From an uncultured Sphingomonas sp. (GTDB lineage: Bacteria; Pseudomonadota; Alphaproteobacteria; Sphingomonadales; Sphingomonadaceae), in NCBI RefSeq assembly GCF_937871615.1, contig NZ_CALMPA010000027.1, positions 1 to 54,602 on the forward strand: a stretch of 54,602 nt of DNA. Direction: 5' to 3'. Made by a program: the position numbers and the translations under genes. The notes under the pieces are model-generated. The model was not told the DNA's origin. It was given only the letters and a program-made list of their open reading frames with translations, and searched no databases. Numbering within the stretch: the first letter of the stretch is position 1; the number at the start of each line of letters is the position of its first letter. Below, piece after piece: positions 14,598-37,470 of this stretch.

Positions 14598-15184
14598 ACC
14601 AGCAACACCCCGCGTTCGCGCAGATAGGAAAGCACCGGCAGCAGCGGCATCCCGAGCACGGTGAACTGGCTGCCCTCGATCCGGCTGAACAATTGCACCC
14701 CCGGCCCCTCGACCCGGTAACAGCCGACGCAGCCGGCGATCGCCGGCCATTCCACGTCGAGATAGGCCTCGATAAACGCCGCCGTCAGCGGGCGGACGAA
14801 CATCCGCGCGCGATCCACCTGCCGCCACACCGGGCGGCCACCTTCGGCGATCACCGCCGCGCTCACCAGATCGTGGCGCTTGCCCGCCATCAGCGTCAGA
14901 TGCTCGGCGGCCTGTTCGCGCGTTTCGGGCTTGTCGAGGATCGTGCCGTCTTCCAGCACCGCGAGCGAATCCGATCCCAGCACCAGCGCCTGCGGATCGC
15001 GCTGCGACACTTTCAGCGCCTTCAGTTCGGCCAGCGCATCGGCGAGATCGCGCGGGTGTCGCCCGGCCAGCGCCGCCTTTGCCGCCGCCTCGTCGACATG
15101 GGCCGGCTGCGCGGTGAACGGCACGCCCGCCGCCTCCAGCATCGCGCGGCGCGAGGCGGATTGCGAGGCGAGGATCAGCTTCAT
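14594..15184 (-). CDS. maf: Maf-type nucleoside triphosphate pyrophosphatase
   Basis: 196 residues. Maf proteins hydrolyse dTTP/UTP or modified nucleotides (house-cleaning) and are tied to septum control. LILASQSASRRAMLEAAGV is the N-terminal nucleotide-binding signature, GSDSLAVLEDGTILDKP holds the catalytic Asp region and GKRHDLVSAA follows. The second motif GSDS rather than GADT suggests the YceF-like subgroup (7-methyl-GTP), but that is a guess. Four-base overlaps on both sides. Confidence 0.92.
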   Translation of the reverse strand: MKLILASQSASRRAMLEAAGVPFTAQPAHVDEAAAKAALAGRHPRDLADALAELKALKVSQRDPQALVLGSDSLAVLEDGTILDKPETREQAAEHLTLMAGKRHDLVSAAVIAEGGRPVWRQVDRARMFVRPLTAAFIEAYLDVEWPAIAGCVGCYRVEGPGVQLFSRIEGSQFTVLGMPLLPVLSYLRERGVLLV

Positions 15185-16011
15185 GCCTCGCCGCCCCCCG
15201 GATTACCGCGCCGTTCATGGTATAAGGAGATGATCGCCGCCGCGGTTTCCTCGATCGAGCGCCGCGTCACGTCGATCACCGGCCAGCCATGGTCGGTGAA
15301 CATGCGCCGCGCGAACGCGATCTCCTTCGATACCGAATCCTGATCGACATAAGCGGTCGCGGGCGCCTGATTGAGCGAGAGCAGCCGGTTGCGCCGCACC
15401 TGGATCAGCCGGTCCGCGCTGGTGGTGAGGCCGACGATCAGCGGATTTTTCAGCGTATAGAGCGATGGCGGCGGCGGGCTTTCCACCACGATCGGGATAT
15501 TGGCGACCTTGAAGCCGCGATTGGCGATATAGATGGAGGTCGGCGTCTTCGATGAACGGCTCACCCCGGCCAGCACGATATCGGCCTTCTCCCAATCCTC
15601 GTGCCCGATGCCGTCGTCATGCGCGATGGTGAACTGGATTGCATCGACCCGCTCGAAATAGGCCGCGTCGAGCGCGTGCTGGCGGCCCGGCCGCCCCTTG
15701 GCCTGTTGCCCCAGCAGATCGGACAATGCATCGGTGACGCGATCGAGCGGCGCGACCATCGGCAGCCCGAGTTGCTGGCAGCGTTGCTCCAGCGCGCCGC
15801 GCGTCGCGGCATTCACCAGCGTATAGATCACCAGCCCCGGATTCTGCGCGATTTCCTGAAGGATGCGGTCAAGATGCGCCTCGGTGCGCACCATCGGCCA
15901 GAAATGGCGCACCGTTTCGACATCATCGAACTGCGCGAGCGCGGCCTTGGCGATATTCTCCAACGTCTCGCCGGTCGAATCCGACAAAAGGTGCAGGTGA
16001 AGCCTCACCAT
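15181..16011 (-). CDS. ppsR: Pyruvate,phosphate dikinase / PEP synthase regulatory protein (DUF299)
   Basis: 276 residues. Bifunctional ADP-dependent kinase and Pi-dependent phosphorylase that switches PPDK or PEP synthase off and on. The fold signature is LHLLSDSTGETLENIAKA at the N-terminus and the P-loop GVSRSSKTPTSIY in the middle. It is the first gene left of the origin (start 16011), the position of RP001-type genes beside hemE in Rickettsia and Caulobacter. It heads the leftward operon. Confidence 0.94.
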   Translation of the reverse strand: MVRLHLHLLSDSTGETLENIAKAALAQFDDVETVRHFWPMVRTEAHLDRILQEIAQNPGLVIYTLVNAATRGALEQRCQQLGLPMVAPLDRVTDALSDLLGQQAKGRPGRQHALDAAYFERVDAIQFTIAHDDGIGHEDWEKADIVLAGVSRSSKTPTSIYIANRGFKVANIPIVVESPPPPSLYTLKNPLIVGLTTSADRLIQVRRNRLLSLNQAPATAYVDQDSVSKEIAFARRMFTDHGWPVIDVTRRSIEETAAAIISLYHERRGNPGGGEA

Positions 16012-16026
16012 TCAGCGGGACAAGCC

Positions 16027-16046
16027 TGTGGATATCATGTGGACAA
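16027..16046 (-). promoter_or_regulatory. Pair of DnaA boxes (one mismatch each)
   Basis: On the minus strand these read ATATCCACA (16027-16035) and TTGTCCACA (16038-16046) against the consensus TTATCCACA. They are same-oriented and two bases apart. The first lies 15 bases upstream of the ppsR start. Confidence 0.7.
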
Positions 16047-16089
16047 GCGCTAGCGTAACGCCGCCCGCACGCCAACCCGGATCGGGCGG

Positions 16090-16098
16090 CGTGGATAA
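16090..16098 (-). promoter_or_regulatory. DnaA box (one mismatch)
   Basis: Minus-strand TTATCCACG, differing from consensus only at the last base. Same orientation as the neighbouring strong boxes. Confidence 0.68.
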
Positions 16099-16149
16099 CG
16101 TCTGATTCGTCCACAAACCCGTCCACGATCGCGAAGTTCCTCCACAGGC

Positions 16150-16167
16150 TGTGGATAACGTGGACAA
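16150..16167 (-). promoter_or_regulatory. Perfect DnaA box with adjoining weak box
   Basis: Plus-strand TGTGGATAA at 16150-16158 is an exact complement of TTATCCACA. It is directly followed by CGTGGACAA (16159-16167), a two-mismatch copy, giving tandem same-oriented boxes with no gap. Confidence 0.82.
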
Positions 16168-16317
16168 GGATTCCCGAATCGTCGCGATTCCCCCGAATGC
16201 CGCGCGGTCAAGCTGTTGGCATTTCCGGCAACCATGCATAAGCCCCGCAACCCACGCGCCAACCACATCAACAACATTCTTGAATCTCTTATTCTGGTAG
16301 AAGGACGCGCAACCCTG

Positions 16318-17337
16318 ATGACCAAGGCCCTGCTCAACGTCCTGAACGGCGATCGCCCCGCCACCCCGCCGATGTGGCTCATGCGGCAGGCCGGGCGCTA
16401 TCTCCCCGAATATCGCGCGCTGAGAGCGGAAAAGGGCGGATTCCTCGCGCTCGCGACCGACCCGCACGCCGCCGCCGAGGTGACGTTGCAGCCGATCCGC
16501 CGCTTCGGCTTCGATGGCGCGATCCTGTTTTCCGATATCCTGATGGTGCCCTGGGCGCTGGGGCAGGAGCTGACGTTCGGGCCGGGCGAGGGGCCGCGCC
16601 TGTCGCCGCCGCTGGTCGATCATCCGCTGGGCGACTTGCGGCGCGCGGCGGATCGGCTCGATCCGGTCTATGCCACGGTGCGCCGGGTGAAGGCCGATCT
16701 GCCCGCGGACGTGACCTTCCTCGGTTTCGCGGGCAGCCCGTGGACGGTCGCCACCTATATGGTCGCAGGGCATGGCAGCCGCGATCAGGGCGAGACGCGC
16801 GGTTTCGCCTATCGCTCCCCCGCCGCATTCGAGGCGATCGTCGAGGCGATCGCGGCGATGACGGTCGATTACCTCTCCGGCCAGATCGAGGCGGGGGTGG
16901 AGGCGGTGCAATTGTTCGATAGCTGGGCGGGCAGCCTTTCGCCCGAACAGTTCGATCGCTGGGTGATCGCGCCCAATACGCGGATCGTGAAGGCGCTGAA
17001 GGCGCGGCATCCGCACGTGCCGGTGATCGGCTTTCCGAAGGGCGCGGGCGGCAAACTTGCCGCTTACGCCACGCAAACCGGGGTCGATGCGATCGGGCTG
17101 GACGAAACTGTCGATCCGGTGTGGGCCGATGCGGTGCTGCCCAAGGGGATGCCGGTGCAGGGCAATCTCGATCCGCTCGCGCTGGAGGCCGGCGGCGATG
17201 CGCTGGCGCGCGGCGCGGACAGGGTGCTTGCGGCGTTCCGCGATCGGCCGCACATCTTCAACCTCGGGCACGGCATCGGCCAGCACACGCCGATCGCGCA
17301 TGTCGAGCAACTGGTGGCGCGGGTGAGGAGGAACTGA
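16318..17337 (+). CDS. hemE: Uroporphyrinogen decarboxylase
   Basis: 339 residues. Converts uroporphyrinogen III to coproporphyrinogen III in heme synthesis. The N-terminal signature PPMWLMRQAGRYLPEYR (18-34), the catalytic region FSDILMVPWALG, GFAGSPWTVATYMVAG and the DSWAG motif are all present. ATG 16318 gives the normal family start; an upstream in-frame ATG at 16216 would push translation into the origin. The closest ribosome binding site (AAGGA near 16300) is rather far. The stop overlaps the hemJ start (TGATG). Confidence 0.96.
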   Translation: MTKALLNVLNGDRPATPPMWLMRQAGRYLPEYRALRAEKGGFLALATDPHAAAEVTLQPIRRFGFDGAILFSDILMVPWALGQELTFGPGEGPRLSPPLVDHPLGDLRRAADRLDPVYATVRRVKADLPADVTFLGFAGSPWTVATYMVAGHGSRDQGETRGFAYRSPAAFEAIVEAIAAMTVDYLSGQIEAGVEAVQLFDSWAGSLSPEQFDRWVIAPNTRIVKALKARHPHVPVIGFPKGAGGKLAAYATQTGVDAIGLDETVDPVWADAVLPKGMPVQGNLDPLALEAGGDALARGADRVLAAFRDRPHIFNLGHGIGQHTPIAHVEQLVARVRRN

Positions 17338-19321: not shown

Positions 19322-19423
19322 CAGCGGTATCTCCTTTCCCGAAGCGAAGGATAGGCCCAGCCGTGCCGTTTGCCTTTCCCCGCACAACCCCTATCCCCTT
19401 CCCCAAAACGAGGGAGAGGTTCG

Positions 19424-20575
19424 TTGCTGCAAGGCATCCGCGTCGTCGAGCTTGCCACCTATGTCGCCGCGCCCGGCGCGTGCGCCCAGCTTGCCGATTG
19501 GGGGGCGGAGGTAATCAAGGTCGAGGCGCCGGGGGGCGATCCATACCGCCAGTTTTTCGGATTCACCGGCGATGAGATCGCGGAAAACCGCGTGTTCGAT
19601 CTCGAAAATCGCGGCAAGCAATCCATCGTCCTCGATCTGGAACGGGAAGACGAGCGCGCCACGCTGCGCGAACTGATCGCCACCGCCGACGTGTTCGTCA
19701 CCAACACGCGTGCGGCAAGCCTCGCGCGGCTGGGGCTGGGGTGGGAGGAGCTGAAGGCGATCCGCCCCGATCTGATCTACGTCCATTTCAGCGGCTATGG
19801 CGCCAGCGGGCCGGATGCGGCCAAGCCGGGCTTCGATCTCACCGCTTTCTGGGCGCGTTCGGGGTTGTGTTCGCTCGCCACGGTGAAGGGTGGGGAGCCG
19901 CCGCTGTTGCGCACCGGGATCGGCGATCACAGCGCCTCGCTCGCGCTCACCTCGGGGATCATGGCGGCATTGTTTCATCGCGAGCGCACCGGGGAAGGGC
20001 AGAAGATCGAGGGATCGCTGCTGCGCGTCGGCGTGTTCATCGGCGGGGCGGAACATGCCATCCAGCTCCAGCTTGGCCGCCTTGCCTCACCCCGCCCGCG
20101 CCAGCAGGCGATCAATCCGCTCAGCAATTTCTTCCGCTCTGGCGACGGGCAATGGTTCATCATCGTGCCGCGTTCGGGCGGGGATGGGGATTGGCCGGCG
20201 ATCGCCCGCGCCGCGCGGCGGCCCGAGCTGCTCGATGATCCGCGCTTTGCCGGGGTGCGGGCGCGGCGCGAGCATGTCGGGATATTGGTCGCGCTGCTCG
20301 ATGCCGGTTTCGGCGCGATGACATGGGATGAGGCGCGCACGGCGCTGGCGGCGGAGGATCTGATCTTCGCCGCCGTGCAGAGCGTCGCGGATGCCACGCG
20401 CGATCCGCAGGCGATCGCCGCCGGCTGCTATGCGCCGTTCGCGGGGGAGGCGGCGCTATTGCCCGCCCCGCCGCTCGATTTCGGCGTTCCGGTGGCCGCG
20501 CCGCGCCGCGCCCCCGCGCTCGATGCCGATGGCGCGGCGATCCGCGAAATGCTTGGCGCGCGCCGCCCGCTATAG
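19424..20575 (+). CDS. CaiB/BaiF family (class III) CoA-transferase
   Basis: 383 residues from a TTG at 19424 with GGGAGAGG four bases upstream. The N-terminus LQGIRVVELATYVAAPGACAQLADWGAEVIKVE is the family signature, and the catalytic Asp is Asp168 in GIGDHSASLA. DLENRGKQSIVLDL and GEGQKIEGSLL also match. It moves CoA between carboxylic acids via an anhydride intermediate; the substrate pair is unknown. The sequence upstream of the TTG (19370-19423) looks like a degenerate PLPLPQNEGE-type non-coding repeat, so a longer start is unlikely. Stands alone between rho and terC. Confidence 0.88.
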   Translation: MLQGIRVVELATYVAAPGACAQLADWGAEVIKVEAPGGDPYRQFFGFTGDEIAENRVFDLENRGKQSIVLDLEREDERATLRELIATADVFVTNTRAASLARLGLGWEELKAIRPDLIYVHFSGYGASGPDAAKPGFDLTAFWARSGLCSLATVKGGEPPLLRTGIGDHSASLALTSGIMAALFHRERTGEGQKIEGSLLRVGVFIGGAEHAIQLQLGRLASPRPRQQAINPLSNFFRSGDGQWFIIVPRSGGDGDWPAIARAARRPELLDDPRFAGVRARREHVGILVALLDAGFGAMTWDEARTALAAEDLIFAAVQSVADATRDPQAIAAGCYAPFAGEAALLPAPPLDFGVPVAAPRRAPALDADGAAIREMLGARRPL

Positions 20576-20663: not shown

Positions 20664-21383
20664 TTGATTCTTACATTACTTGCCGCTGTGGCCGCCGTTG
20701 CCGGCCCCGGATCGCTTGGCGATATCTGGCAGCATATCGTCGCCGATTTCTCGAATATCACCGAGCCGGCGGCGCTGGCCGCGTTCGGGCAGGTGTTGAT
20801 GATTGATCTGGTGCTGGCGGGCGACAATGCGATCGTCGTCGGGGCGCTGGCCGCCGGGCTGCCAGCCGATCAGCGCAAGAAGGTGATCCTGATCGGCATC
20901 GTCGCGGCGCTGGTGCTGCGCATCATCTTCGCGCTGATGGTCACCTGGCTGATGGGGATCGTCGGGCTGATCTTCGCCGGCGGCCTGCTGCTCTTGTGGG
21001 TCAGCTGGAAGTTCTGGCGCGAGATCAGGAGCGGCGGGCACGGGGCGGACCTTGCCGACGACAGCCAGCAATCGGGCCTGTCGCCCGCGCGGAGCTTCGC
21101 TGGCGCCGCCTGGGCGGTCGCGGTGGCCGATGTGTCGATGAGCCTTGATAACGTGCTGGCGGTGGCGGGCGCGGCGCGCGAGCATCCGGGGATTCTGGTC
21201 GTCGGCCTGATCCTGTCGGTCGCGCTGATGGGGCTGGCGGCCAACTGGATCGCGCGGATCATCGATCGCTATCGCTGGATCGCCTATGTCGGGCTAGCGG
21301 TGATCCTCTTTGTCGCGCTCAAGATGATGTATGAAGGCTGGATCGGCACGGAAAGTACGCTGGGGTTGATGTCATTGTTCTGA
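20664..21383 (+). CDS. TerC family integral membrane protein
   Basis: About 239 residues, seven hydrophobic helices. The two conserved acidic membrane motifs are MIDLVLAGDNAIVVG and VADVSMSLDNVLAVAG. TerC proteins are thought to export manganese or other divalent metals, in some bacteria supporting exported metalloenzymes. No ATG lies before the first motif; the TTG at 20664 has GGGAG eight bases upstream and is preferred. A central polar loop (GGHGADLADDSQQSGL) separates the halves. A yybP-type manganese riboswitch, often found before such genes, is not seen. Confidence 0.85.
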   Translation: MILTLLAAVAAVAGPGSLGDIWQHIVADFSNITEPAALAAFGQVLMIDLVLAGDNAIVVGALAAGLPADQRKKVILIGIVAALVLRIIFALMVTWLMGIVGLIFAGGLLLLWVSWKFWREIRSGGHGADLADDSQQSGLSPARSFAGAAWAVAVADVSMSLDNVLAVAGAAREHPGILVVGLILSVALMGLAANWIARIIDRYRWIAYVGLAVILFVALKMMYEGWIGTESTLGLMSLF

Positions 21384-21399
21384 ACCGTGGGTTCACGGT
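21384..21399 (+). terminator. Small hairpin after terC
   Basis: ACCGTG (21384-21389), loop GGTT, CACGGT (21394-21399), directly at the terC stop. Six base pairs and no T-run: a weak terminator candidate. Confidence 0.35.
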
Positions 21400-21402
21400 G
21401 CA

Positions 21403-21418
21403 TTCAACGCGCGTTGAA
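21403..21418. promoter_or_regulatory. 16-bp perfect palindrome upstream of lolA
   Basis: TTCAACGCGCGTTGAA, perfect two-fold symmetry, 34 bases before the lolA start. It looks like a dimeric repressor operator. One such palindrome is expected by chance in roughly 65 kb, so context is the only support. Confidence 0.35.
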
Positions 21419-21451
21419 GATAACCGTAATCATGGACATTGGAGAATCGGC

Positions 21452-22054
21452 GTGAAATTCCTCCTGCCGCTCGCGGCCATCGTGACCGCCGCCCCGGCCC
21501 TCGCGCAGACCGGCGATCTGGCGCAGGTGCAGCGGCATCTCGCGGCGGTGACAAGCATGACCGCCGCGTTCAGCCAGACGGATCGCAACGGCAAGGTGCT
21601 CAACGGCACATTGACCTTGAAGAAGCCCGGAAAGATCCGCTTCCAATATGAAAAGGGCGTGCCGATCCTGATCGTCGGCGATGGCAAGGCGCTGACTTTC
21701 ATAGATTATTCAGTGAAACAGGTGCAGCGTTGGCCGATCGGCAACACCCCGCTTGGCGTGCTGATAAATCCGAACAAGGATATCAGCGGCTATGCCAAAA
21801 TCGTGCCCTCCGCCGATCCGCGCGTGCTGTCGGTGGAAGGCTATGATCCGAAGCATCCGGAATATGGCCGGATCACATTGGTGTTCGCGCGCGACGATTC
21901 CGCGCCGGGCGGGCTGATGCTGCAAGGCTGGGTGATGCTCGACAGCCAGGGCAACCGCACGACGATCCGCCTGTCGGATCAACGCTTCAACATGCCGGTG
22001 GACGACGGAACGTTCCGCTGGAACGACCCGCGGAGGAACCCGGCGCACAGCTAG
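21452..22054 (+). CDS. lolA: Outer-membrane lipoprotein carrier LolA
   Basis: 200 residues from a GTG with GGAGA seven bases upstream. Signal peptide (VKFLLPLAAIVTAAPALAQ, cleavage after ALA), then a periplasmic chaperone that ferries lipoproteins from LolCDE to the outer membrane. Family pattern: HLAAVTSMTAAFSQTDRNGKVLNGTLTLKKPGKIRF and a later DPKHPEYGRITLVF. No lolB or lolCDE in the window. LptE, SCO and LpoA-like lipoproteins elsewhere in the window would be cargo if outer-membrane located. Confidence 0.9.
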   Translation: MKFLLPLAAIVTAAPALAQTGDLAQVQRHLAAVTSMTAAFSQTDRNGKVLNGTLTLKKPGKIRFQYEKGVPILIVGDGKALTFIDYSVKQVQRWPIGNTPLGVLINPNKDISGYAKIVPSADPRVLSVEGYDPKHPEYGRITLVFARDDSAPGGLMLQGWVMLDSQGNRTTIRLSDQRFNMPVDDGTFRWNDPRRNPAHS

Positions 22055-22201
22055 CGGCGTTTTCTTACAATCGTTCACCGCAGCGACAGGTTTACGCGTG
22101 TAGAAGATCAAGGTGGACGCGGGGCTCCGGGATTTTCCCCCTGTTGCTCGGACAACCCTGCTCCCCCTGCGTGACGAACGTCAGGCTGGCCCTCGCTCCA
22201 A

Positions 22202-22218
22202 GCCCCCGGAGCGGGGGC
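22202..22218. terminator. GC-rich hairpin between lolA and ribA
   Basis: GCCCCC (22202-22207), loop GGAGC, GGGGGC (22213-22218), in the 174-bp spacer of two convergent genes and followed on the plus strand by CTTAGCATTTCT. Probable bidirectional terminator. The rest of the spacer is GC-rich with no gene. Confidence 0.5.
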
Positions 22219-22228
22219 CTTAGCATTT

Positions 22229-23278
22229 CTAGAGCTGGTGGCCGGTGCGATCGCGCTTGGTGGCGAGATAGCGCGCGTTGTGCGGATTGGGCGGCAGTGC
22301 GTGCGCCACACGCTCGGTGACGCTGATTCCGGCGGCTTCGAGCCCGGCGACCTTCGCGGGGTTGTTGGTCATCAGCCGCACCCGATGCTGGCCGAGCAGC
22401 GCCAGCATCCGCGCCGCCACCCCGAAATCGCGCGCGTCGATCGCAAAGCCGAGCCGGGTGTTGGCGTCCACCGTATCATGCCCCTGATCCTGGAGGGCGT
22501 AGGCACGCAGCTTGTTGACCAGCCCGATTCCACGCCCCTCCTGCCGCAGATAGAGCAGGATGCCCCAGCCACTCGCCTCGATCGTCCTGATCGCCGCGTC
22601 GAGCTGTGGGCCGCAATCGCATTTCAGGCTGCCCAGCGCGTCCCCGGTCAGGCATTCGCTGTGCAGCCTTACCAGCGGCGGCTGGCCGTTCGGTGCGCCG
22701 ATCACCAGTGCGACATGCTCGCCGGGCGATTCGGGCGTGCGGAAGGCGACGATCTCCGCATCCTCGGCGTGCGCGACGGGCAGGCGCGCGCGTGCCGCGA
22801 TCGTCAGCCGGATCGCATCCTCGTGCGCGTCGATATCGGCGGGGGTGATCGTCACTTCACCCGCGCCATCGGGCAGCACGAAAAAGGCGGGGAGCAGCCC
22901 CGCGATCCGCGCGAGCCGCAGTGCCGCCGCGGCGTCTTGCGGGTGATCGAGATGGATAGCGCGGAACGGCCCCTTGAGCGGAGTCGCGAGATCGAGTTGC
23001 GGATCGGCCAGCGCGGTCGCCGCCGCGAAATCGAGCCAGGGCGCGCGATCGACCAGCACCGGCGCGTCGGGGACCGCCGCTTCGAGTTGGTTGGCGAGTT
23101 TCAGCGTCACCGCCCGCCCCGCCGACAGCAATACGGGCGCGTTGTCCGCCGCATCGAACGCCGCGAGCCGCACCGCGTCCGCCGTCTCGATCGGCAACAG
23201 CGCCAGCGCGCCGATGCGGATCGGCCAGCCGCGCCGCAGTGCGTCGATCGCCCGCGCGGCCTGGCGCGGATCGCTCAA
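22229..23278 (-). CDS. ribA: GTP cyclohydrolase II with N-terminal extension
   Basis: 349 residues against about 200 for stand-alone RibA. The C-terminal half is the riboflavin-pathway enzyme: zinc cysteines Cys209, Cys220 and Cys222 (SECLTGDALGSLKCDC), LRQEGRGIGL (244-253) and MTNNPAKV. It opens GTP to the diaminopyrimidine precursor. The first 160 or so residues show no DHBP-synthase acidic motif, so this is not a plain RibBA fusion; their function is unknown. Start: TTG 23278, overlapping the xthA stop as TTGA; no ATG or GTG lies nearby. Confidence 0.87.
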   Translation of the reverse strand: MSDPRQAARAIDALRRGWPIRIGALALLPIETADAVRLAAFDAADNAPVLLSAGRAVTLKLANQLEAAVPDAPVLVDRAPWLDFAAATALADPQLDLATPLKGPFRAIHLDHPQDAAAALRLARIAGLLPAFFVLPDGAGEVTITPADIDAHEDAIRLTIAARARLPVAHAEDAEIVAFRTPESPGEHVALVIGAPNGQPPLVRLHSECLTGDALGSLKCDCGPQLDAAIRTIEASGWGILLYLRQEGRGIGLVNKLRAYALQDQGHDTVDANTRLGFAIDARDFGVAARMLALLGQHRVRLMTNNPAKVAGLEAAGISVTERVAHALPPNPHNARYLATKRDRTGHQL

Positions 23279-24078
23279 AAATCGAACTCGGTCATGATCG
23301 GCACATGGTCCGATGGCTTTTCCCAATTGCGACATGCCTCGAACACATGGTGCGACCGAGCCGTTTTCGCCACCTCGCCGGTCGCCCACATATGATCGAG
23401 CCGGCGGCCGCGATCGTTCTTGGTCCAATCGGGTGAACGATAGCTCCACCAGGTATGGAGTCGCGCCGGGGCGGGATGGAAATGTCGCCCGAGATCGACC
23501 CAGTCGTTCGACGCCTTCAGTCGATCCAGCGACTCCACCTCGATCGGCGTGTGGCTGACGACCTTGAGCAGCGCCTTGTGGCTCCAAACGTCGCTGGGCA
23601 GCGGGGCGATGTTGAAATCGCCGGTCAGGATCGTCGGGCGATCGAGCTTTTCCGACCAGTCGGTCATGCGCTGGACGAAATCGAGCTTCTGCCCGAATTT
23701 CGCGTTCACCGCGCGATCGGGCACGTCGCCGCCGGCGGGGACATAGACATTTTCCAGCCGCACGCCATTGGCGAGCCGCACGCCGATATGCCGGGCCTCG
23801 CGATTGGCCTGCCAATCGAGCCGGTCGTCCTCCACCAGCGGCACGCGGCTGATGATCGCGACGCCGTGGTGCATCCGCTGGCCGTGGACGAGGATGTGCT
23901 CATAGCCGAGCGCGCGGAACGCATCTGCCGGGAAATCGGCGTCGATCACCTTGGTTTCCTGCAGGCACAGGATATCGGGCGCCGCCTCACGCAGGAATTG
24001 TTCGACGATGGCGATGCGGAACCGCACCGAATTGATGTTCCAGCTGACGATTTTCACGCGATCGCGTGTAACCGCCAC
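23275..24078 (-). CDS. xthA: Exodeoxyribonuclease III
   Basis: 267 residues. AP endonuclease / 3'-5' exonuclease of base-excision repair. VSWNINSVRFR, LQETKV (catalytic Glu41), GDFNIAPLPSDVW and the C-terminal RRLDHMWAT...PSDHVPIM hold the metal and catalytic residues (final His pairs with Asp). GTG 24078 is used; a GTG at 24057 (VKIVSWN) is the alternative. It starts seven bases after the HAD gene and overlaps ribA, so all belong to one operon with yggS. Confidence 0.93.
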   Translation of the reverse strand: MAVTRDRVKIVSWNINSVRFRIAIVEQFLREAAPDILCLQETKVIDADFPADAFRALGYEHILVHGQRMHHGVAIISRVPLVEDDRLDWQANREARHIGVRLANGVRLENVYVPAGGDVPDRAVNAKFGQKLDFVQRMTDWSEKLDRPTILTGDFNIAPLPSDVWSHKALLKVVSHTPIEVESLDRLKASNDWVDLGRHFHPAPARLHTWWSYRSPDWTKNDRGRRLDHMWATGEVAKTARSHHVFEACRNWEKPSDHVPIMTEFDF

Positions 24079-24085
24079 GAAGGCG

Positions 24086-24748
24086 TCAGTCGAGCAGGCG
24101 CGCTACCTCACCAAAATCATGGGCGATTGCCTGCACGCCAAGCGCGCGGAGCCGTTGGGCATGATCCGGCGCGCAATGGCTACCCGCGCAAAGCCCGATG
24201 ACATGGCCGCCCGAGGCCACCGCCCCGGTCGCGCCGACGGGCGAATCCTCGATAATCGCGCAGCGTTCGATCGGCACCCCCAAACGATCTGCGCCATAGA
24301 GATACAGATCGGGGGCGGGCTTGCCGTTGGCGACATGTTCGCGACCGGAATAAACGTGGTCGCCGAACGCGCCGGCCAGCCCGATATGATCGAGGTGGCG
24401 GCGAATCCACCGTGTCGAACTGGAGGAGACGATCGCGCGCGGCAGATCGGCGGGAAGCGATTCAACGAACGCGACCGCGCCGGCCACCGCCTCTATCCCC
24501 TCGGCCATCACGCGCGCATCCTCCGCCTCGCGTGCCGCGTAAAAATCGTCCGGGATCGGGCGGCCGATCCACTTTTCGATCCGCTTCAGAAAATCGGCGC
24601 CGGACAAGCCCATGAAATTTGCCATGGATTGCGCGGGGGTCGTCGGGTGGCCGATCGAGGTGAGATAGTCGGCGATCTGGCGGTTGCCGACCGCTTCGCT
24701 CTCGATCAGCACCCCGTCGAAATCGAAAAGGATCGCGTCGAACTTCAT
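24086..24748 (-). CDS. HAD-superfamily hydrolase (phosphatase-like)
   Basis: 220 residues. Motif I FDFDGVLIESE (nucleophile Asp9, acid Asp11), motif II IVSSSST, motif III Lys in NGKPAPDLYL and motif IV IIEDSPVGATGA, so it is catalytically complete. The alpha-helical cap after motif I puts it in subfamily IA. Related enzymes are phosphoglycolate phosphatase or beta-phosphoglucomutase; the substrate is not predictable. ATG 24748 overlaps the yggS stop by four bases. Confidence 0.88.
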   Translation of the reverse strand: MKFDAILFDFDGVLIESEAVGNRQIADYLTSIGHPTTPAQSMANFMGLSGADFLKRIEKWIGRPIPDDFYAAREAEDARVMAEGIEAVAGAVAFVESLPADLPRAIVSSSSTRWIRRHLDHIGLAGAFGDHVYSGREHVANGKPAPDLYLYGADRLGVPIERCAIIEDSPVGATGAVASGGHVIGLCAGSHCAPDHAQRLRALGVQAIAHDFGEVARLLD

Positions 24749-25425
24749 TTCGAGGCTCGCGCGCCGAACAATGCGCTGCCGACACGGATGTGGGTCGCGC
24801 CGAGCAGCACGGCGGTTTCGAAATCGCCGGACATGCCCATGCTGAGCCCGGCAAGGCCATGATCGCGTGCCAGCTTGGCGAGCAACGCGAAATAGGGTGC
24901 CGGCTCCACATCGGCGGGGGGCAGGCACATCAGCCCGGCGAGCGGCAGCTCCGCCACGCGCGCTGCGGCGAGCAGCGCGGGCAATTCCTCGATCGCGCAG
25001 CCGCCTTTTTGCGGCTCGGCGCCGATATTGACCTGGATGAAGCACGCCGGGCGCTTGCCTTGCGTGTCCATCGCTTTTGCCAGCGCGGAGACCAGCGACG
25101 GGCGATCCACGGCATGGATCGCATCAGCGAGCGTAACGGCTTCCGCCGCCTTGTTCGATTGGAGCTGGCCGATCAGGTGCAGCCGCGTCTCAGGCCATTG
25201 TTCGCGCAGCGCCGGCCATTTCTCCTGCGCTTCCTGCACGCGATTTTCGCCGAAATCGCGCTGGCCGGCGGCGAGCAGCGGGGTGATCGCATGGGCGGGG
25301 TGCGTTTTGGATACGGCGATCAGCGTGACATCGGCGGGTGAGCGGCGCGCTGGTTTGGCGGCATGTGCGACGCGCTCCTGAATCGAGGCGAGGCGCGCGG
25401 GCGGAGACATCTCGGCGGAAGGCAT
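24745..25425 (-). CDS. yggS: YggS family PLP-binding protein (PLP homeostasis)
   Basis: 226 residues. Fold type III, no known enzyme activity; keeps pyridoxal phosphate available and balanced. The PLP lysine is Lys40 in LIAVSKTHP, followed by FGENRVQEAQEKW, HLIGQLQSNK and the phosphate-binding LSMGMSGDFETAVLLGATHIRVGSALFG. First gene of the yggS-HAD-xthA-ribA operon. Divergent from the TenI-like gene. Confidence 0.93.
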   Translation of the reverse strand: MPSAEMSPPARLASIQERVAHAAKPARRSPADVTLIAVSKTHPAHAITPLLAAGQRDFGENRVQEAQEKWPALREQWPETRLHLIGQLQSNKAAEAVTLADAIHAVDRPSLVSALAKAMDTQGKRPACFIQVNIGAEPQKGGCAIEELPALLAAARVAELPLAGLMCLPPADVEPAPYFALLAKLARDHGLAGLSMGMSGDFETAVLLGATHIRVGSALFGARASK

Positions 25426-25447
25426 GTGCCGCGCTATAGGAAGCGCG

Positions 25448-25957
25448 ATGCCTCCCCGCCACCCCGTCCCGCGCCTTTGGCTGATGACCGACGAGCGCGT
25501 CGGCGATCGGCTGTGGGTGGCGGTGCGGCGTCTGCCGCGCGGTTCGGGGATCGTCTTTCGCCACTATGTCACGCCCGAGGCCGAGCGGCGGCGGTTGTTC
25601 GCGCGGCTGTTGCGGATCGCGCGACGGCGTGAACTGGTGCTGGTGCGCGCCGGGCCGACGCGGTTCGCGGGTGAGATGGGGACGCATGGCCGGCGCGGGG
25701 CGGGGCTAACCACCTGGCCGGCGCACTCCCGACGCGAGGCGGCAACAGGCGTTCGTCACGGGGCGGCGGTGCTGTTCATTTCGCCGGTATTTGCCACGCG
25801 CTCGCATCCCGGCGCGGTCGTGCTTGGGTCGCGGCGGGCGGCGGCGATCGCGCGCGGGATGCCCGCACGGTGCATCGCGCTTGGCGGGATGGATTGCGCG
25901 CGCTTCACCCGCCTTACCGGATTCGATGGTTGGGCGGCGATCGACGCCTGGCTGTGA
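25448..25957 (+). CDS. TenI/ThiE-like protein, probably not a thiamine-phosphate synthase
   Basis: 169 residues, shorter than ThiE (about 210). Fold clues: PRLWLMTDER at the N-terminus, TWPAHSRREAATGVRHGAAVLFISPVF in the middle and GGMDCARF near the end. The ThiE motif DGVHLG is replaced by EMGTHGRR, and SPVFATRSHPGA resembles the TenI subgroup. It may be a thiazole tautomerase or a relative without thiazole function. ATG 25448 has AGGAAG just upstream. No other thiamine genes are near. Confidence 0.75.
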   Translation: MPPRHPVPRLWLMTDERVGDRLWVAVRRLPRGSGIVFRHYVTPEAERRRLFARLLRIARRRELVLVRAGPTRFAGEMGTHGRRGAGLTTWPAHSRREAATGVRHGAAVLFISPVFATRSHPGAVVLGSRRAAAIARGMPARCIALGGMDCARFTRLTGFDGWAAIDAWL

Positions 25958-26029
25958 CAATGAATTTGGTGAGGTTCGAAAGCGCCGATCACACGGCACG
26001 TTCAAACGATACGAAAAGACGCCCGCGCG

Positions 26030-26758
26030 TCAGAAACGGAAGGCGGTGCCCACATAAACCGCCTGGCTGTCGCGGCGATCGTCGGTGAACTGCGTCAGCC
26101 GCTCCCGCTCGCTCTTGTACCGAACGCCTGCGGTCAGATCTATGTTACGGGTCAGCGAATAGGAGCCGCCGACATCAATCGCATAGCTCGAATTATTGTC
26201 GATCGCCTTGGGTGCGCCGGCCAGCGGGCGATCGGCGGTGGCCTTCACGCGACCCGTGAAGCGATTGAGCGAATAGCTGACCGCAACATCCGCCGATTCG
26301 CGGCTGCCTGGCTGCGGCCCGACATCGACGCGTGAGATATCGCCCGAGACGGCGAAGCGCTGCCAGCCGATCGCCGCGCCGAGATTATAGGCGATCGGCG
26401 CGATTCCCACGGTGGCCGCATTGGCGGCGAAGCGAGTCGTTCCGTCACCCGTGCGAGTCGAACGGGCGCGTACCGCGACGGTGACAGCGCGATTCCCCTG
26501 CCGTGTTTCCGCCGGCGTGAAGCGGAACTCGCCGACATCGGCGCCATCGAGCCCGCCGCGCGCGAATACGGCGGCGAGCCTGGGATCAGCGGCGGACGGC
26601 GTGAAGCTGCTGGAAAAGCGGGCGGTTGCGGCTGCGGCAGCCACTTTCTTCGCCGTGCGTTGACCCACTTCGGTGGCCCCGATCGCGGGCGCGACGGCGG
26701 CAGCCGCGGCGACGAGCGCCACGATCATTCCGCCAGCAATCGCGCGTGCAGCGACCAC
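26030..26758 (-). CDS. Small outer-membrane beta-barrel-like exported protein
   Basis: About 242 residues. Hydrophobic Ala-rich signal (ARAIAGGMIVALVAAAAAV, cleavage near AIGA), then alternating polar/hydrophobic strands such as GSYSLTRNIDLTAGVRYKSE and a terminal AVYVGTAFRF. A C-terminal phenylalanine is the usual signal for BAM-dependent barrel insertion. No enzyme motif; function unknown. GTG 26758 has GGAG six bases upstream; a GTG at 26770 adds four residues and no better site. Divergent from the DUF3576 gene. Confidence 0.6.
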   Translation of the reverse strand: MVAARAIAGGMIVALVAAAAAVAPAIGATEVGQRTAKKVAAAAATARFSSSFTPSAADPRLAAVFARGGLDGADVGEFRFTPAETRQGNRAVTVAVRARSTRTGDGTTRFAANAATVGIAPIAYNLGAAIGWQRFAVSGDISRVDVGPQPGSRESADVAVSYSLNRFTGRVKATADRPLAGAPKAIDNNSSYAIDVGGSYSLTRNIDLTAGVRYKSERERLTQFTDDRRDSQAVYVGTAFRF

Positions 26759-26778
26759 GAGTTTCTCCACAACCCAAA

Positions 26779-26814
26779 CCGGATCGAAAATGCGCCTAAC
26801 ATGATTCGATCCGG
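26779..26814. promoter_or_regulatory. 10-bp inverted repeat in the divergent promoter region
   Basis: CCGGATCGAA (26779-26788) and TTCGATCCGG (26805-26814), perfect arms, 16-base spacer. It lies about 20 bases upstream of the barrel gene start and could be an operator or a leader hairpin. Confidence 0.4.
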
Positions 26815-26944
26815 ACGCACCATCTATAGAGTCGCTTTATTGCTAAGTGTTGCATCAGGCCCACATACCGGCCCCGCTTGCGGGCGGCGGGGTGCGTCTG
26901 TAGAGGTTGCGGCTGCTGTTTCCCTCGCTTTCAGGACGATGCCG

Positions 26945-27379
26945 ATGTTCCGCCCGTTGCGTCTCGCGCTAGCCGTTGGCGCTGCCCTCGCCCTTACCGC
27001 GTGCGGGCACAATCGTGCCCGCCCCGAGGCCGATCTCGCCGCGTCGAAGATCACCACGATCGGCGTCAATTCCTATCTGTGGCGCGCGACGCTCGACACC
27101 TTGTCGTTCATGCCGCTGCTCCAGACGGATTCGAACGGCGGCGTCGTCGTGACCGACTGGTACGTCAACCCGCAGGTGCCGACCGAGCGGATGAAGGTGA
27201 CCGTCTCGATCCTCGATCAGGATTTGCGCGCGGATGCGCTGCGCGTCGCTGCGCTGCGCGAGGTGAATCGCGGCGGCCAGTGGGTATCCGCGCCGGTCGC
27301 GGCATCTACCACGCAGAAGCTGGAAGACATCATCCTGACCCGTGCGCGCGATCTGCGGCGCGCTTCGATCACCGGCTGA
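26945..27379 (+). CDS. DUF3576 lipoprotein
   Basis: 144 residues. Lipoprotein signal with lipobox LTAC (lipidated Cys about 19). Body: SKITTIGVNSYLWRATLDTLSFMPLLQTDSNGGVVVTDW, then MKVTVSILDQDLRADALRV, typical of DUF3576, an alphaproteobacterial family regularly upstream of leuS. Role unknown; location next to lptE suggests outer-membrane biogenesis. ATG 26945 has AGGA eight bases upstream; ATG 26939 is too close to it. Lies 42 bases before leuS. Confidence 0.83.
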   Translation: MFRPLRLALAVGAALALTACGHNRARPEADLAASKITTIGVNSYLWRATLDTLSFMPLLQTDSNGGVVVTDWYVNPQVPTERMKVTVSILDQDLRADALRVAALREVNRGGQWVSAPVAASTTQKLEDIILTRARDLRRASITG

Positions 27380-27421
27380 CGCGCGGGTGATCCCGTGCGC
27401 CGCCCGACCGACAAGAGATAA

Positions 27422-29922
<2,501 letters not shown>

Positions 29923-29926
<4 letters not shown>

Positions 29927-30423
29927 CGCGGCTCGCCGCCTTGCTCGCGCTGGCGCTCTCGCTCGGCGGATGCGGGCTTCAGCCGCTCTACACGGCGGGA
30001 GGCTCGGGGCCGGTGGCGCAGGCGCTCGGTCAGGTCGAGGTGGCGCCGATCGAGGGCAAATCGGGCTGGCTCGTCGCCAATGCGCTCCGCGATCGGTTCG
30101 GTGAAAGCGGTGCGCAAACCGCGCGCTATCGGCTCGACGTGAAGCTCGACGACAAGATCATCGGCCTTGCGGTGCGCAGCGACAACAGCGTCACGCGAGA
30201 GCGGCGGACGTTGCGCGCGCGCTATCAGCTTGTCGCGCTCGATACGGGCACGGTGGTGCTCGACGCCACCGCCGGATCGGATGCCGGCATTGATGTCGTC
30301 ACCTCCGAATATGCCACGATCGCGGCGGAGAGCACCGCGCTGGAGCGGCTGAGCGATATCGTCGCCGATCAGATCGTCGCGCGTGTCGCGCTCTATGCGA
30401 GGAATGAGACGGCGCCGAAATGA
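29923..30423 (+). CDS. lptE: LPS-assembly lipoprotein LptE
   Basis: 166 residues. Lipobox LGGC (lipidated Cys about 17) then [10 protein letters not shown], the conserved start of mature LptE. With LptD it forms the outer-membrane lipopolysaccharide translocon. The pattern [11 protein letters not shown] and the C-terminal [16 protein letters not shown] fit the family. leuS-lptE-holA order as in E. coli supports the call. Four-base overlaps on both sides. Confidence 0.9.
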
Positions 30424-31445: not shown

Positions 31446-31449
31446 GCGA

Positions 31450-32346
31450 TCAGATTCGTTCCCCGCTCAGCCGCTGACACACCATATCGAGTTGATCGAG
31501 CGTCGAATAATCCAGCGTGATGGACCCGCCACGCTCACCGTGCTGGATGCGCACATTGAGGCCGAGCAGATCGGACAATTGCCGTTGCAGCGCCATGATA
31601 TCGGCATCCGGCGAATCCTGCCGATAAGCCGCCATTCCGCGCGAGCCACGCTGCGTATCGGGCTTGGCCGCGCTCGCCAGCCGCTCGGTCTGCCGGACGG
31701 ACAACCCCTTTTCGATCACTTCCTGCGCCAGCGCCGCCGGGCTGGGCGCACCGATCAACGCGCGGGCATGGCCCATCGACAGCTTGCCATCGACGACGAG
31801 CGCCTGAACGTCGTGAGGAAGATCAAGCAATCTCAGCAAGTTGGCGATATGACTGCGCGATTTGTGGACGATCTTCGCCAGCGCTTCCTGGGTATGGCCG
31901 AATTCCTCGGCGAGCCGGTGATAGGCTTCGGCCTCCTCGATCGCATTTAGATCCTGGCGCTGGATGTTTTCCAGCAACGCGATCTGCAACGTGTCGCTAT
32001 CGCTATAATCGCGGACGACGACGGGCACTTCGTGCAGCCGCGCGCGTTGCGCCGCGCGCCAGCGGCGCTCGCCCGCGACGATCTGGTAATCATGGCCGTG
32101 CGGACGGACGATGATCGGCTGGATCAACCCGCGTTCAGCGATCGACGCGGCAAGCTCGGCCAGCGCGGCTTCATCGAAATGCCGCCGCGGCTGGCCGGGG
32201 TGAGGGGCGATCGAGCTGACCGGGATCAGCCGCACGCCGGTGGCCGAATGCCCCTCGTTCGCGGTTTCCGCCTCGTCGCGCGCGAAATCGCCGAGCAAAG
32301 CGTTGAGCCCGCGGCCAAGGCCGGGGCGGGGGCGACGATCGGTCAT
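31450..32346 (-). CDS. parB: Chromosome partitioning protein ParB
   Basis: 298 residues. CTP-dependent DNA clamp that loads at parS and spreads. N-terminal GLGRGLNALLG (ParA-interacting), CTPase motif GERRWRA at 92-98 with GQPRRHF before it, central helix-turn-helix (HTQEALAKIVHKSRSHIANLLRLL) and C-terminal dimer domain. Operon with parA (four-base overlap). Two parS candidates lie at 33180 and 35438, upstream in the same transcription unit. Confidence 0.96.
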   Translation of the reverse strand: MTDRRPRPGLGRGLNALLGDFARDEAETANEGHSATGVRLIPVSSIAPHPGQPRRHFDEAALAELAASIAERGLIQPIIVRPHGHDYQIVAGERRWRAAQRARLHEVPVVVRDYSDSDTLQIALLENIQRQDLNAIEEAEAYHRLAEEFGHTQEALAKIVHKSRSHIANLLRLLDLPHDVQALVVDGKLSMGHARALIGAPSPAALAQEVIEKGLSVRQTERLASAAKPDTQRGSRGMAAYRQDSPDADIMALQRQLSDLLGLNVRIQHGERGGSITLDYSTLDQLDMVCQRLSGERI

Positions 32347-33125
32347 GCGGCGGCCTCTTTCATGCGGGGAAGCCGCGCGATCAATTCCCGTGCCAGCGCG
32401 ATATACGCTTCCGATCCGCTGCAGCGATGATCGTAGATCAGCGCGGGCAGGCCGTGGCTCGGCGCTTCGGAAAGCCTGACGTTGCGCGGGATAACGGTGT
32501 CGAACACGACACGGCCCAGCACCGCGCGAACATCAGTCGCGACCTGTTCGGTCAACCGATTGCGGCGATCATACATGGTGAGCGCGACGCCCATGATCGA
32601 CAGAGACGGATTGAAGCGCGCGCGAATCCGCTCGACCGTGCTCAGCAACTGGCTCAACCCTTCGAGCGCGAAAAATTCGCATTGCAGCGGGACGAGCAGC
32701 GAATCCGCAGCGACCATCGCGTTGATCGTCAGCAGCCCGAGCGAGGGCGGGCAATCTATCAGCACGATATCCCAGCGCGGGCCACATGCTTCGATCGCGC
32801 GAAGCAGACGGTGCGTGCGCGCCTCTAGCTCGACAAGCTCGATTTCCGCGCCGGACAGATCCACTGTCGCGGGCAGGATCTCCAGCCGGGGAATGCCGCT
32901 GCCGATCACACCATGTTCGATCGGAGTGCCATCAACCAGCACGTGATAACTCGACACGGTGCGCAGCCCGTGTTCGATCCCCAGCCCGGTGGAAGCATTG
33001 CCCTGTGGATCGAGATCGATCAGCAACACGCGCTTGCCGGTCGCGGCGAGCGCGGTCGCGAGGTTGATCGCGCTGGTCGTCTTGCCAACGCCGCCCTTCT
33101 GGTTGGCCACCGCGATACAGATCAT
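32343..33125 (-). CDS. parA: Chromosome partitioning ATPase ParA
   Basis: 260 residues. Deviant Walker A KGGVGKTT at 10-17, A' motif LLIDLDPQGNASTGLG and Walker B IVLIDCPPSLG. Moves ParB-parS complexes by binding the nucleoid as an ATP dimer. Overlaps rsmG by four bases. C-terminus lies four bases inside parB. Confidence 0.97.
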   Translation of the reverse strand: MICIAVANQKGGVGKTTSAINLATALAATGKRVLLIDLDPQGNASTGLGIEHGLRTVSSYHVLVDGTPIEHGVIGSGIPRLEILPATVDLSGAEIELVELEARTHRLLRAIEACGPRWDIVLIDCPPSLGLLTINAMVAADSLLVPLQCEFFALEGLSQLLSTVERIRARFNPSLSIMGVALTMYDRRNRLTEQVATDVRAVLGRVVFDTVIPRNVRLSEAPSHGLPALIYDHRCSGSEAYIALARELIARLPRMKEAAA

Positions 33126-33736: not shown

Positions 33737-35454
33737 GCACTGGCCTTCGCGTAGAGCCATAACGCGGTGAGCGCGGCGGGGGTGACGCCGCGCACCCGGG
33801 AAGCTTCGTCGAGCGTATGGGGATTGGCGATTTGCAGTCGTTCACGCATTTCGTTCGACAGCCCGTTGACGTGGACCAGCGCATCGCCGCGCGGAATTGC
33901 GATCGTCGCGTCACGCCGCATTCGCTCGATCTCGTCCGCTTGCCGCTCCAGATACGGGGCGTAACGCGCGTCCTCCTCGGCCTCGCGCAGCAGATCGGCA
34001 TCGACGCCGCAATGCTCGCCGCGCGCGATGGCCTCGCGCTGACGCGCTCTGGCGGCGACATGCGCGCGCCGCGCCGCGCCGAGCAGGGCGTGTTCATCTG
34101 CGATCGTGGATAGTCGCGTCTCCGCATTGTCGGCGCGCAACGCCAGCCGATATTCGGCGCGCGCGGTGAGCATCCGATAAGGTTCGGTCACGCCCTGAAG
34201 AACGAGATCGTCGATCATCACCGCGAGGTAACTGGTTGCGCGATCGAGCAGCAGCGGCGCGAGATCGAGTGCATGGGCGGCGGCGTTCGCGCCCGCGACG
34301 AGCCCTTGCGCGCCCGCTTCCTCATAGCCGGTGGTGCCATTGATCTGCCCGGCGAGAAACAGCCCCGGCATCGCCCCGAGCGCGAGCCGATGATCGAGCG
34401 CGCGTGGATCGACATGATCGTATTCCACCGCATAGCCGGGGGTGACGATCACGGCGTCGGCCAGGCCGGGGATCGAGCGCACGAGCGCGATCTGAACGTC
34501 CGTTGGCAGTGAGGTGGAGATGCCGTTGGGATAGACCAGCGGATCATCCAGCCCCTCAGGCTCAAGGAAAACCTGATGCCCGTCGCGATCGCCGAAGCGG
34601 CGAATCTTGTCTTCGATCGAGGGGCAATAGCGCGGGCCACCCGCCTCGATCGCGCCGGTGTGCAGTGGGGAGCGATGCAGGTTATCGCGGATGATCGCGT
34701 GGGTTCGCTCGGTGGTGCGGGAAATCGCGCAGGCGAGCTGGGGGAGCGGGCGGCCACGCGACATCGGCGACATCGTCCATTCATCGACATCCGATGGCTG
34801 GGGGGTGAGGGCGGCCCAGTCGATCGTTCGCCCATCGAGGCGCGGGGGAGTCCCGGTCTTCAGGCGCCGGATCGGCAGGTCCAGCGCGCGAAGCTGCCGG
34901 GCGAGCTTTGTCGCGCCGGCCTCGCCGATACGGCCGCCTTCCTCCTGTTCGTCACCGCGAAAAATCCGCCCGCCGAGAAAAGTCCCGGTCGCGATAACGA
35001 TTGAACGCGCGCGAATTTCGCTTGCGTCGGCCAGGACGACACCCGCGACCGCTCCCGATTCGACGATCAGCGCAACCGCTTCGCCTTCGATGATCGCGAG
35101 TTGCGGTTGCTGGCTGAGCTGGGCTTGTATTGATCGCGCGTATCGCGTGCGGTCTGCCTGGATGCGGGGGCCTTGCACCGCGAGCCCCTTGCTCCGGTTG
35201 AGCATCCGATGATGGATCGCCGCAGCGTCCGCGGCGCGTGCCATCAAGCCGTCGAACGCGTCAATCTCGCGGACGAGATGCCCCTTGCCGAGCCCGCCGA
35301 TCGACGGATTGCACGACATCACGCCGATGCGATCGCGGCGGTGTGAAAGCAGCGCGGTGCGCGCGCCGCGTCTTGCGGCGGCGGCGGCGGCTTCGGTGCC
35401 GGCATGGCCGCCGCCGATCACGATCACGTCATAAACTTGTTCCACGTGAAACAT
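33733..35454 (-). CDS. mnmG: tRNA uridine-5-carboxymethylaminomethyl(34) synthesis protein MnmG
   Basis: 573 residues, clearly shorter than the usual 610-630. FAD-binding protein that with MnmE modifies U34 of tRNAs. VIVIGGGHAGTEAAAAAARRG, CNPSIGGLGKGHLVREIDA (redox cysteine), GTFLGGRIFRGDE and the C-terminal NGLSNEMRERL are all present. The shortening is one gap near residue 480 (about 34010) in the helical region before ARYAPYLERQADEIERM. ATG 35454 overlaps the mnmE stop (TGATG); a GTG at 35457 is possible. The first codons contain a parS site (FHVEQ). Confidence 0.94.
   Translation of the reverse strand: MFHVEQVYDVIVIGGGHAGTEAAAAAARRGARTALLSHRRDRIGVMSCNPSIGGLGKGHLVREIDAFDGLMARAADAAAIHHRMLNRSKGLAVQGPRIQADRTRYARSIQAQLSQQPQLAIIEGEAVALIVESGAVAGVVLADASEIRARSIVIATGTFLGGRIFRGDEQEEGGRIGEAGATKLARQLRALDLPIRRLKTGTPPRLDGRTIDWAALTPQPSDVDEWTMSPMSRGRPLPQLACAISRTTERTHAIIRDNLHRSPLHTGAIEAGGPRYCPSIEDKIRRFGDRDGHQVFLEPEGLDDPLVYPNGISTSLPTDVQIALVRSIPGLADAVIVTPGYAVEYDHVDPRALDHRLALGAMPGLFLAGQINGTTGYEEAGAQGLVAGANAAAHALDLAPLLLDRATSYLAVMIDDLVLQGVTEPYRMLTARAEYRLALRADNAETRLSTIADEHALLGAARRAHVAARARQREAIARGEHCGVDADLLREAEEDARYAPYLERQADEIERMRRDATIAIPRGDALVHVNGLSNEMRERLQIANPHTLDEASRVRGVTPAALTALWLYAKASA
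35438..35453. promoter_or_regulatory. parS site overlapping the mnmG start
   Basis: Plus strand TGTTCCACGTGAAACA, one mismatch from TGTTTCACGTGAAACA. It forms codons 1-6 of mnmG (MFHVEQ) and is about 19 kb from oriC. Confidence 0.88.
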
Positions 35455-36964: not shown

Positions 36965-37015
36965 TTCGAAGCACTCCTTGAGCGGCGCGACATCGCGCGA
37001 TAGCGTCCCGCCGAG

Positions 37016-37468: not shown

Positions 37469-37470
37469 AA

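What the first reader, a model, noticed from the sequence alone, without database searches (positions are those of the whole stretch)
16012..16317. Likely chromosomal replication origin between ppsR and hemE
A 306-bp divergent spacer carries a perfect DnaA box, three one-mismatch boxes and weaker copies, mostly in one orientation, plus an AT-rich stretch beside hemE (28 of 42 bases at 16261-16302). In Caulobacter and Rickettsia oriC lies at this same gene junction. The whole window is therefore origin-proximal.
Basis: partly seen in the sequence, partly recalled or inferred. Interest (0 to 1): 0.75.

Follow-up and report, generated by a model that had tools for sequence, protein, structure and literature searches.

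The report
Sphingomonas chromosome replication origin (oriC)
The 306-base gap between ppsR and hemE is very probably where this Sphingomonas-like chromosome starts copying itself; such bacteria are already predicted to have their origin there, so it is an ordinary but well-supported find.

Summary
In detail: the 306-bp ppsR/hemE spacer holds one perfect and three one-mismatch DnaA boxes (4 seen, 0.04 expected in shuffles) and an AT-rich 42-mer (28/42), the third least stable peak of the window. The junction and its boxes are conserved in relatives. parAB and a parS site lie in the window; parS was found in 16 of 20 genomes, every site near ppsR. GC skew is lower left than right of the junction in 14 of 14 single-contig relatives, but three differences are tiny and only 9 change sign. 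Against: same-genus G091 has its GC-skew switch about 45 kb away, though its KOPS polarity fits the junction. Added detail: GANTC (CcrM-type) sites are about threefold enriched over shuffles (464 against 152 in 98 spacers), an IHF-like core is conserved, and CtrA boxes are nearly absent. An origin close to hemE is already predicted for most Sphingomonadaceae in DoriC (PMC4741004, passages), so this is a new member of a known kind. Firing of the origin is not shown.

The parts
16012..16317 (.). oriC spacer (306 bp) between ppsR and hemE
15181..16011 (-). ppsR (Kinase-PPPase PF03618), left flank, stop codon included
16318..17337 (+). hemE (uroporphyrinogen decarboxylase PF01208), right flank, stop codon included
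   Evidence: start codon chosen by the hemE matches of relatives
16027..16035 (-). DnaA box, one mismatch (ATATCCACA)
16038..16046 (-). DnaA box, one mismatch (TTGTCCACA), 11 bp from the previous one
16090..16098 (-). DnaA box, one mismatch (TTATCCACG)
16107..16115 (+). weak DnaA box, two mismatches
16138..16146 (+). weak DnaA box, two mismatches, in a conserved TCCACAG block
16150..16158 (-). perfect DnaA box, in a strongly conserved block
16159..16167 (-). weak DnaA box, two mismatches, directly beside the perfect box
16104..16108 (.). GANTC (CcrM-type) site
16169..16173 (.). GANTC site
16176..16180 (.). GANTC site; by eye a GANTC is at this place in 17 of 18 aligned sequences (one shifted by a base), middle base A or C
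16186..16190 (.). GANTC site
16282..16286 (.). GANTC site inside the AT-rich element
   Evidence: 45 of 59 anchored spacers have a GANTC on this side
16208..16218 (+). IHF-like site TCAANNNNTTG, in a conserved GTCAAgcTGTTGGCA block
16239..16247 (+). conserved TAAnCCCCG element, 31 bp from the start of the IHF-like site in 43 of 59 anchored spacers; role unknown
16261..16302 (.). AT-rich stretch, candidate duplex unwinding element
35438..35453 (.). parS site (one mismatch to TGTTTCACGTGAAACA)
31450..32346 (-). parB
32343..33125 (-). parA

Best explanation
This is oriC of the main chromosome of a Sphingomonas-like bacterium. DnaA-ATP binds the perfect box at 16150 and the weaker boxes to its left. 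A bend at the IHF-like site (16208) brings bound DnaA towards the AT-rich stretch next to hemE (16261-16302), which melts and is loaded with the helicase. Forks leave in both directions, co-oriented with the nearest genes (ppsR and the four genes behind it on the left, hemE-hemJ-rho on the right). ParB on parS near 35.4 kb segregates the new origin. Shown: the anatomy, its conservation, and strand-composition and parS evidence in relatives. Inferred: DnaA, IHF and CcrM binding, melting, and firing.
For: DnaA-box cluster far above chance: 239 boxes with up to one mismatch in 98 distinct spacers (96 of 98 have at least one) against 5.4 in shuffles. Divergent hemE/ppsR junction with a spacer in 103 of 110 loci examined, the window's own included; the other 7 lacked ppsR (6) or hemE (1) in the fetched stretch. 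GC skew of the window is -0.044 left and +0.030 right of the spacer, cumulative minimum in the 2-kb step 15001-17000. In 14 of 14 sampled single-contig relatives skew is lower just left than just right, with a true minus-to-plus change in 9. G071 is the cleanest: -0.036 to +0.067, GGGNAGGG 0 forward/9 reverse to 5/1 in the 20 kb on each side. Over the 14 relatives GGGNAGGG is 27/94 left and 61/42 right. parS: 16 of 20 genomes have a site with up to one mismatch; the 25 sites of the 15 relatives all lie 5.8-11.0 kb from ppsR, the window's one at 19.4 kb; the backwards control gave 0 in all 20. DnaA, GcrA, a RAMA-domain (CcrM-like) protein and four IHF/HU-family genes are in the genome. Published prediction close to hemE for most Sphingomonadaceae in DoriC (PMC4741004, passages).
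Against: G091 (same genus, single contig) has positive GC skew on both sides of the junction; its switch is near 2.160 Mb, about 45 kb away, although GGGNAGGG polarity (1/11, then 3/1 in the two adjoining 20-kb pieces) and its DnaA boxes fit the junction. No true sign change near the junction in G094, G047, G026, G053 and G091; the left-right differences in G047, G053 and G091 are under 0.01, and in G094 the outer samples run the wrong way. GGGNAGGG polarity fits on both sides in only 8 of 14; in G036 the right side is opposite (3/11) and in G089 the left side is (3/1). In 6 of 14 the junction has no more boxes with up to one mismatch than the best other place within 20 kb. Skew at the left end of the window (1-6 kb) is near zero. 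The own genome is a draft. A second small cluster (two perfect boxes and one with one mismatch in 203 bp) lies on contig C66.
Confidence: 0.95

Rival explanations
1. The boxes only regulate ppsR and hemE transcription (DnaA as transcription factor) or titrate DnaA, and replication starts elsewhere nearby.
For: The spacer is a divergent promoter region; GC skew of G091 switches about 45 kb away.
Against: Skew and parS evidence in most relatives centres on this junction. The spacer has an AT-rich element and conserved structure. No sigma-70-type promoter match was found in 15900-16420, weak evidence for alphaproteobacteria.
Confidence: 0.04
2. The box cluster on contig C66 (15463-15665) is the true or a second origin.
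For: Two perfect boxes and one with one mismatch in 203 bp; the open-frame list shows no obvious gene over about 1.1 kb there (no family search made).
Against: Fewer boxes than the spacer (3 against 4 with up to one mismatch); no parS with up to one mismatch on any contig but C27. Its skew was not tested.
Confidence: 0.01

Closest known systems
Caulobacter crescentus Cori (hemE/CC0001 junction)
   Same: Same flanking genes (hemE and COG1806/DUF299), DnaA boxes, an AT-rich region of 40 bp, an IHF site (PMC1914354 passages); several GANTC motifs are reported in the C. crescentus origin and in closely related species (PMC3973325 passage).
   Different: Cori has five CtrA sites; the window spacer has none, not even TTAA, and 2 of 98 spacers have a full TTAA-N7-TTAA (0.2 in shuffles).
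Predicted oriC of Sphingopyxis and other Sphingomonadaceae (Ori-Finder/DoriC)
   Same: Predicted close to hemE, with conserved gene order, DnaA boxes and a putative unwinding element (PMC4741004 passages).
   Different: Different species. The passages seen do not mention GANTC sites or an IHF-like site; its supplement with the alignment was not seen.
Rickettsia prowazekii origin (hemE/RP001)
   Same: Same two flanking genes (PMC1914354 passages).
   Different: Very AT-rich spacer (82.55% AT in that paper's table) against about 42% AT here.

Membership tests
Alphaproteobacterial hemE/COG1806 oriC | Spacer between divergent hemE and ppsR/COG1806 orthologues | tested here: met
Alphaproteobacterial hemE/COG1806 oriC | Cluster of DnaA boxes above chance | tested here: met
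Alphaproteobacterial hemE/COG1806 oriC | AT-rich unwinding element | tested here: met
   (28/42 AT, third least stable peak of the window); melting itself not tested
Alphaproteobacterial hemE/COG1806 oriC | GC-skew minimum at the site | tested here: inconclusive
Alphaproteobacterial hemE/COG1806 oriC | parS/parAB nearby | tested here: met
Alphaproteobacterial hemE/COG1806 oriC | IHF site | tested here: inconclusive
   A TCAA-N4-TTR core is in the window (p 0.04 by shuffling) and in 53 of 98 spacers against 6.3 in shuffles; the full consensus WATCAANNNNTTR (recalled) is in 0 of 98
Caulobacter-type CtrA-silenced origin | CtrA boxes TTAA-N7-TTAA (consensus recalled) | tested here: not met
   0 in the window, 2 of 98 spacers; degenerate sites not tested
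Functional oriC | Initiates replication (read-depth peak, autonomous replication) | not testable with these tools
   needs reads or bench work

The most novel reading that the evidence does not exclude
Sphingomonad origins have replaced direct CtrA silencing by a CcrM/GANTC-methylation (possibly GcrA-read) switch. GANTC sites are in 98 of 98 spacers and about threefold enriched over shuffles, one of them often on the AT-rich side, while CtrA boxes are almost absent; hemimethylated origins would then be held off from re-firing, in the manner of Dam/SeqA. Against it: an influence of CtrA on replication is reported for Sphingomonas melonis (PMC8116508, passage), and three of 14 relatives show no GANTC enrichment at the junction.
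Probability: 0.12. Interest if true: 0.55.

Novelty: new member of a known kind. Interest (0 to 1): 0.22.

Why it matters
It fixes the origin, and so gene dosage and fork direction, for this genome, and adds evidence that the hemE/ppsR origin rule holds in Sphingomonadaceae. The side result, GANTC enrichment with almost no CtrA boxes, makes a testable prediction about replication timing in bacteria where ctrA can be removed without harm to growth (reported for Sphingomonas melonis in PMC8116508, passage, which also says CtrA does influence replication there).

Tried and rejected
A genome-wide GGGNAGGG map of G091 by pattern search: the listing stops after the first 100 places, all forward, so it says nothing about polarity; the counts (388 forward, 360 reverse) are below those of the backwards control (503, 458). 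Rfam on the window found only a tRNA, given as tRNA-Leu by ARAGORN. The inversion seen in the window (about 21.3-38.2 kb) does not explain the G091 skew, because hemE-rho, outside it, carry the odd skew too. The IHF-like block as a sigma-70 promoter: no match by the scan; a weak TTGGCA-N17-TAAGCC reading by eye was not pursued. DnaA-trio elements were looked for by eye only; one search listed one paper, on epsilonproteobacteria, not opened, so no claim is made. An earlier count said GANTC ranks top in 10 of 14 genomes; one search shows 9 of 14, and 9 is used here.

Full report
What was checked. The window is the whole of contig C27 of a draft genome of 3,992,794 bases in 71 contigs. The nearest of the 80 named loci kept by a hemE search are titled Sphingomonas, the closest S. 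lycopersici (hemE 85%, ppsR 91% amino-acid identity); genus membership is inferred from that. The 80 are mostly Sphingomonadales by title, with a few odd or distant titles (for example L011, L049, L079-L082). dnaA lies on another contig, C45; in Sphingomonadales dnaA is reported not to be conserved close to the origin (PMC8116508, passages).

The observation. ppsR (PF03618) and hemE (PF01208) diverge from a 306-bp spacer, 16012-16317. DnaA boxes: one perfect (16150) and three with one mismatch (16027, 16038, 16090), all on the minus strand, plus three with two mismatches, two of them on the plus strand. Four boxes with up to one mismatch were seen against 0.04 in shuffles of the spacer. The window has 8 such boxes in all; the genome has 8 perfect ones, against 10 for the backwards control pattern, so it is the clustering that counts. 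The stretch 16261-16302 has 28 of 42 A or T and is the third least stable peak of the window, after 38147 and 9767.

Conservation. 110 loci were examined (80 brought in by hemE, 30 by ppsR, the window's own among the latter). 103 have hemE and ppsR divergent with a spacer between; seven were dropped, six without ppsR and one without hemE in the fetched stretch. Without three distant loci the spacers are 280-976 bp long, median 323, 86 of 100 within 280-370. Removing duplicates leaves 98 distinct spacers, the window's included. These hold 239 boxes with up to one mismatch (96 of 98 spacers) against 5.4 in shuffles. Alignments (85 spacers of 270-380 bp, 18 chosen ones) show conserved blocks at about 16025-16033, 16122-16129, 16140-16160 (with the perfect box), 16207-16221 (GTCAAgcTGTTGGCA), 16239-16247 (TAAnCCCCG) and 16259-16280.

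Skew. In the window GC skew is -0.044 left and +0.030 right of the spacer, with the cumulative minimum in the step 15001-17000 and near-zero skew at 1-6 kb. Fourteen of the 16 single-contig family members with ppsR (G038 and G096 were not sampled) were sampled beside the junction. The left piece has lower skew than the right in all 14, but the difference is under 0.01 in G047, G053 and G091. A true minus-to-plus change is seen in 9 (G095, G036, G033, G015, G078, G088, G092, G071, G089), not in G094, G047, G026, G053, G091. Outer samples run the same way in 13 of 14 (not G094; in G089 the difference is 0.001). G071 is the clearest. GGGNAGGG (KOPS; motif recalled from E. coli) is mostly reverse on the left in 12 of 14 and mostly forward on the right in 10 of 14, both in 8 of 14; G036 (right 3/11) and G089 (left 3/1) go against; summed 27/94 left, 61/42 right. 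In the window it is 1/1 left and 6/1 right. Because the nearest genes point away from the junction, part of the skew may come from transcription.

The exception. In G091 the skew is positive from about 2.160 Mb through the junction at 2.2087 Mb and onwards, and negative for some way before. GGGNAGGG polarity turns at the junction (1/11, then 3/1). No parS with up to one mismatch was found in G091. I have no explanation; a recent rearrangement or an origin shift of about 45 kb in that species are both open.

parS. A site with up to one mismatch was sought in 20 genomes: 16 have it, four do not (G091, G038, G094, G027). The 25 sites of the 15 relatives lie 5.8-11.0 kb from ppsR, the window's one at 19.4 kb. 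The backwards control pattern gave 0 in all 20. parB, parA, rsmG, mnmG and mnmE lie at 31.4-36.7 kb of the window.

Additional sequence features. GANTC: 5 in the window spacer against 1.23 expected (p 0.0045 by shuffling); 464 in 98 spacers against 152 in shuffles, at least one in each. Against real sequence it is less special: two other places in the window (about 10.5-10.7 and 26.2-26.3 kb) also reach 5 in 306 bp; in the 40 kb around the junction it is the densest place in 9 of 14 single-contig relatives, is equalled by a few windows in G095 and G036, and is not enriched in G088, G089 and G091. GANTC is reported as enriched in intergenic regions of most alphaproteobacterial chromosomes (PMC8116508, passage) and present in the C. 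crescentus origin (PMC3973325, passage), so this extends known facts. The IHF-like core TCAA-N4-TTR is in 53 of 98 spacers against 6.3 in shuffles, but the full recalled consensus is in none; 59 of 98 could be anchored on TCAANNNNTTGG with up to one mismatch. CtrA full sites are in 2 of 98 and not in the window. The genome has a GcrA match (profile positions 93-152 of 155; that family also rings in Sulfolobus among 14 controls), a RAMA-domain protein (the link to CcrM is recalled; of the 14 controls only Caulobacter rings) and four IHF/HU-family genes.

Published state. PMC4741004 (passages) puts the Sphingopyxis TFA origin close to hemE, as predicted for most Sphingomonadaceae in DoriC, with conserved boxes and an unwinding element. 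PMC1914354 (passages) describes the hemE/COG1806 junction in Caulobacter and Rickettsia. Searches for oriC with hemE and Sphingomonas, GANTC or CcrM with oriC or Sphingomonas, and CtrA with oriC and Sphingomonadales listed no paper whose title or seen passages describe GANTC conservation in sphingomonad origins; most listed papers were not opened, and most subscription papers are not held. PMC8116508 (passage) says loss of ctrA does not harm growth of S. melonis but that CtrA does influence replication there, which counts against reading the lack of CtrA boxes as lack of CtrA control.

Verdict. The spacer is very probably oriC. It is ordinary for the group; the methylation-site pattern and the G091 exception are the parts most likely to interest a specialist.

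Noticed in passing
window 21300-38200: A segment of about 17 kb, with the parB-parA-rsmG-mnmG-mnmE operon, is inverted relative to G091, G071 and G053, where rho is followed by mnmE-mnmG-rsmG-parAB. By ParB position and strand against the hemE coordinates (taking the contigs to be the same ones), 4 of 15 relatives (S. lycopersici, S. phyllosphaerae, S. endophytica, S. citricola) look like the window, 10 look non-inverted, and in Sphingomonas sp. Leaf412 parB lies about 47 kb on the other side of the origin.
   Followed up: partly
G091:C1 2160000-2209000 (L146, L147, L120): GC skew is opposite to that expected for the replichore, while GGGNAGGG polarity is as expected.
   Followed up: partly
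L113:2464-2666 (G000 C66:15463-15665): Two perfect and one one-mismatch DnaA boxes in 203 bp, where the open-frame list shows no obvious gene and Rfam none at gathering score; could be a DnaA-titrating or reactivating site.
   Followed up: partly
window 16047-16058: CGCTAGCGtAAC, or near it, is kept in many of the aligned Sphingomonas spacers but not in the Sphingobium, Novosphingobium or Erythrobacter ones (18-sequence alignment); role unknown.
   Followed up: no
window 19355-20572: An open frame that reads like a CoA-transferase (by eye, not searched) sits right after rho; no match in the fetched flanks of three of the four relatives compared, only a distant one in G089.
   Followed up: no
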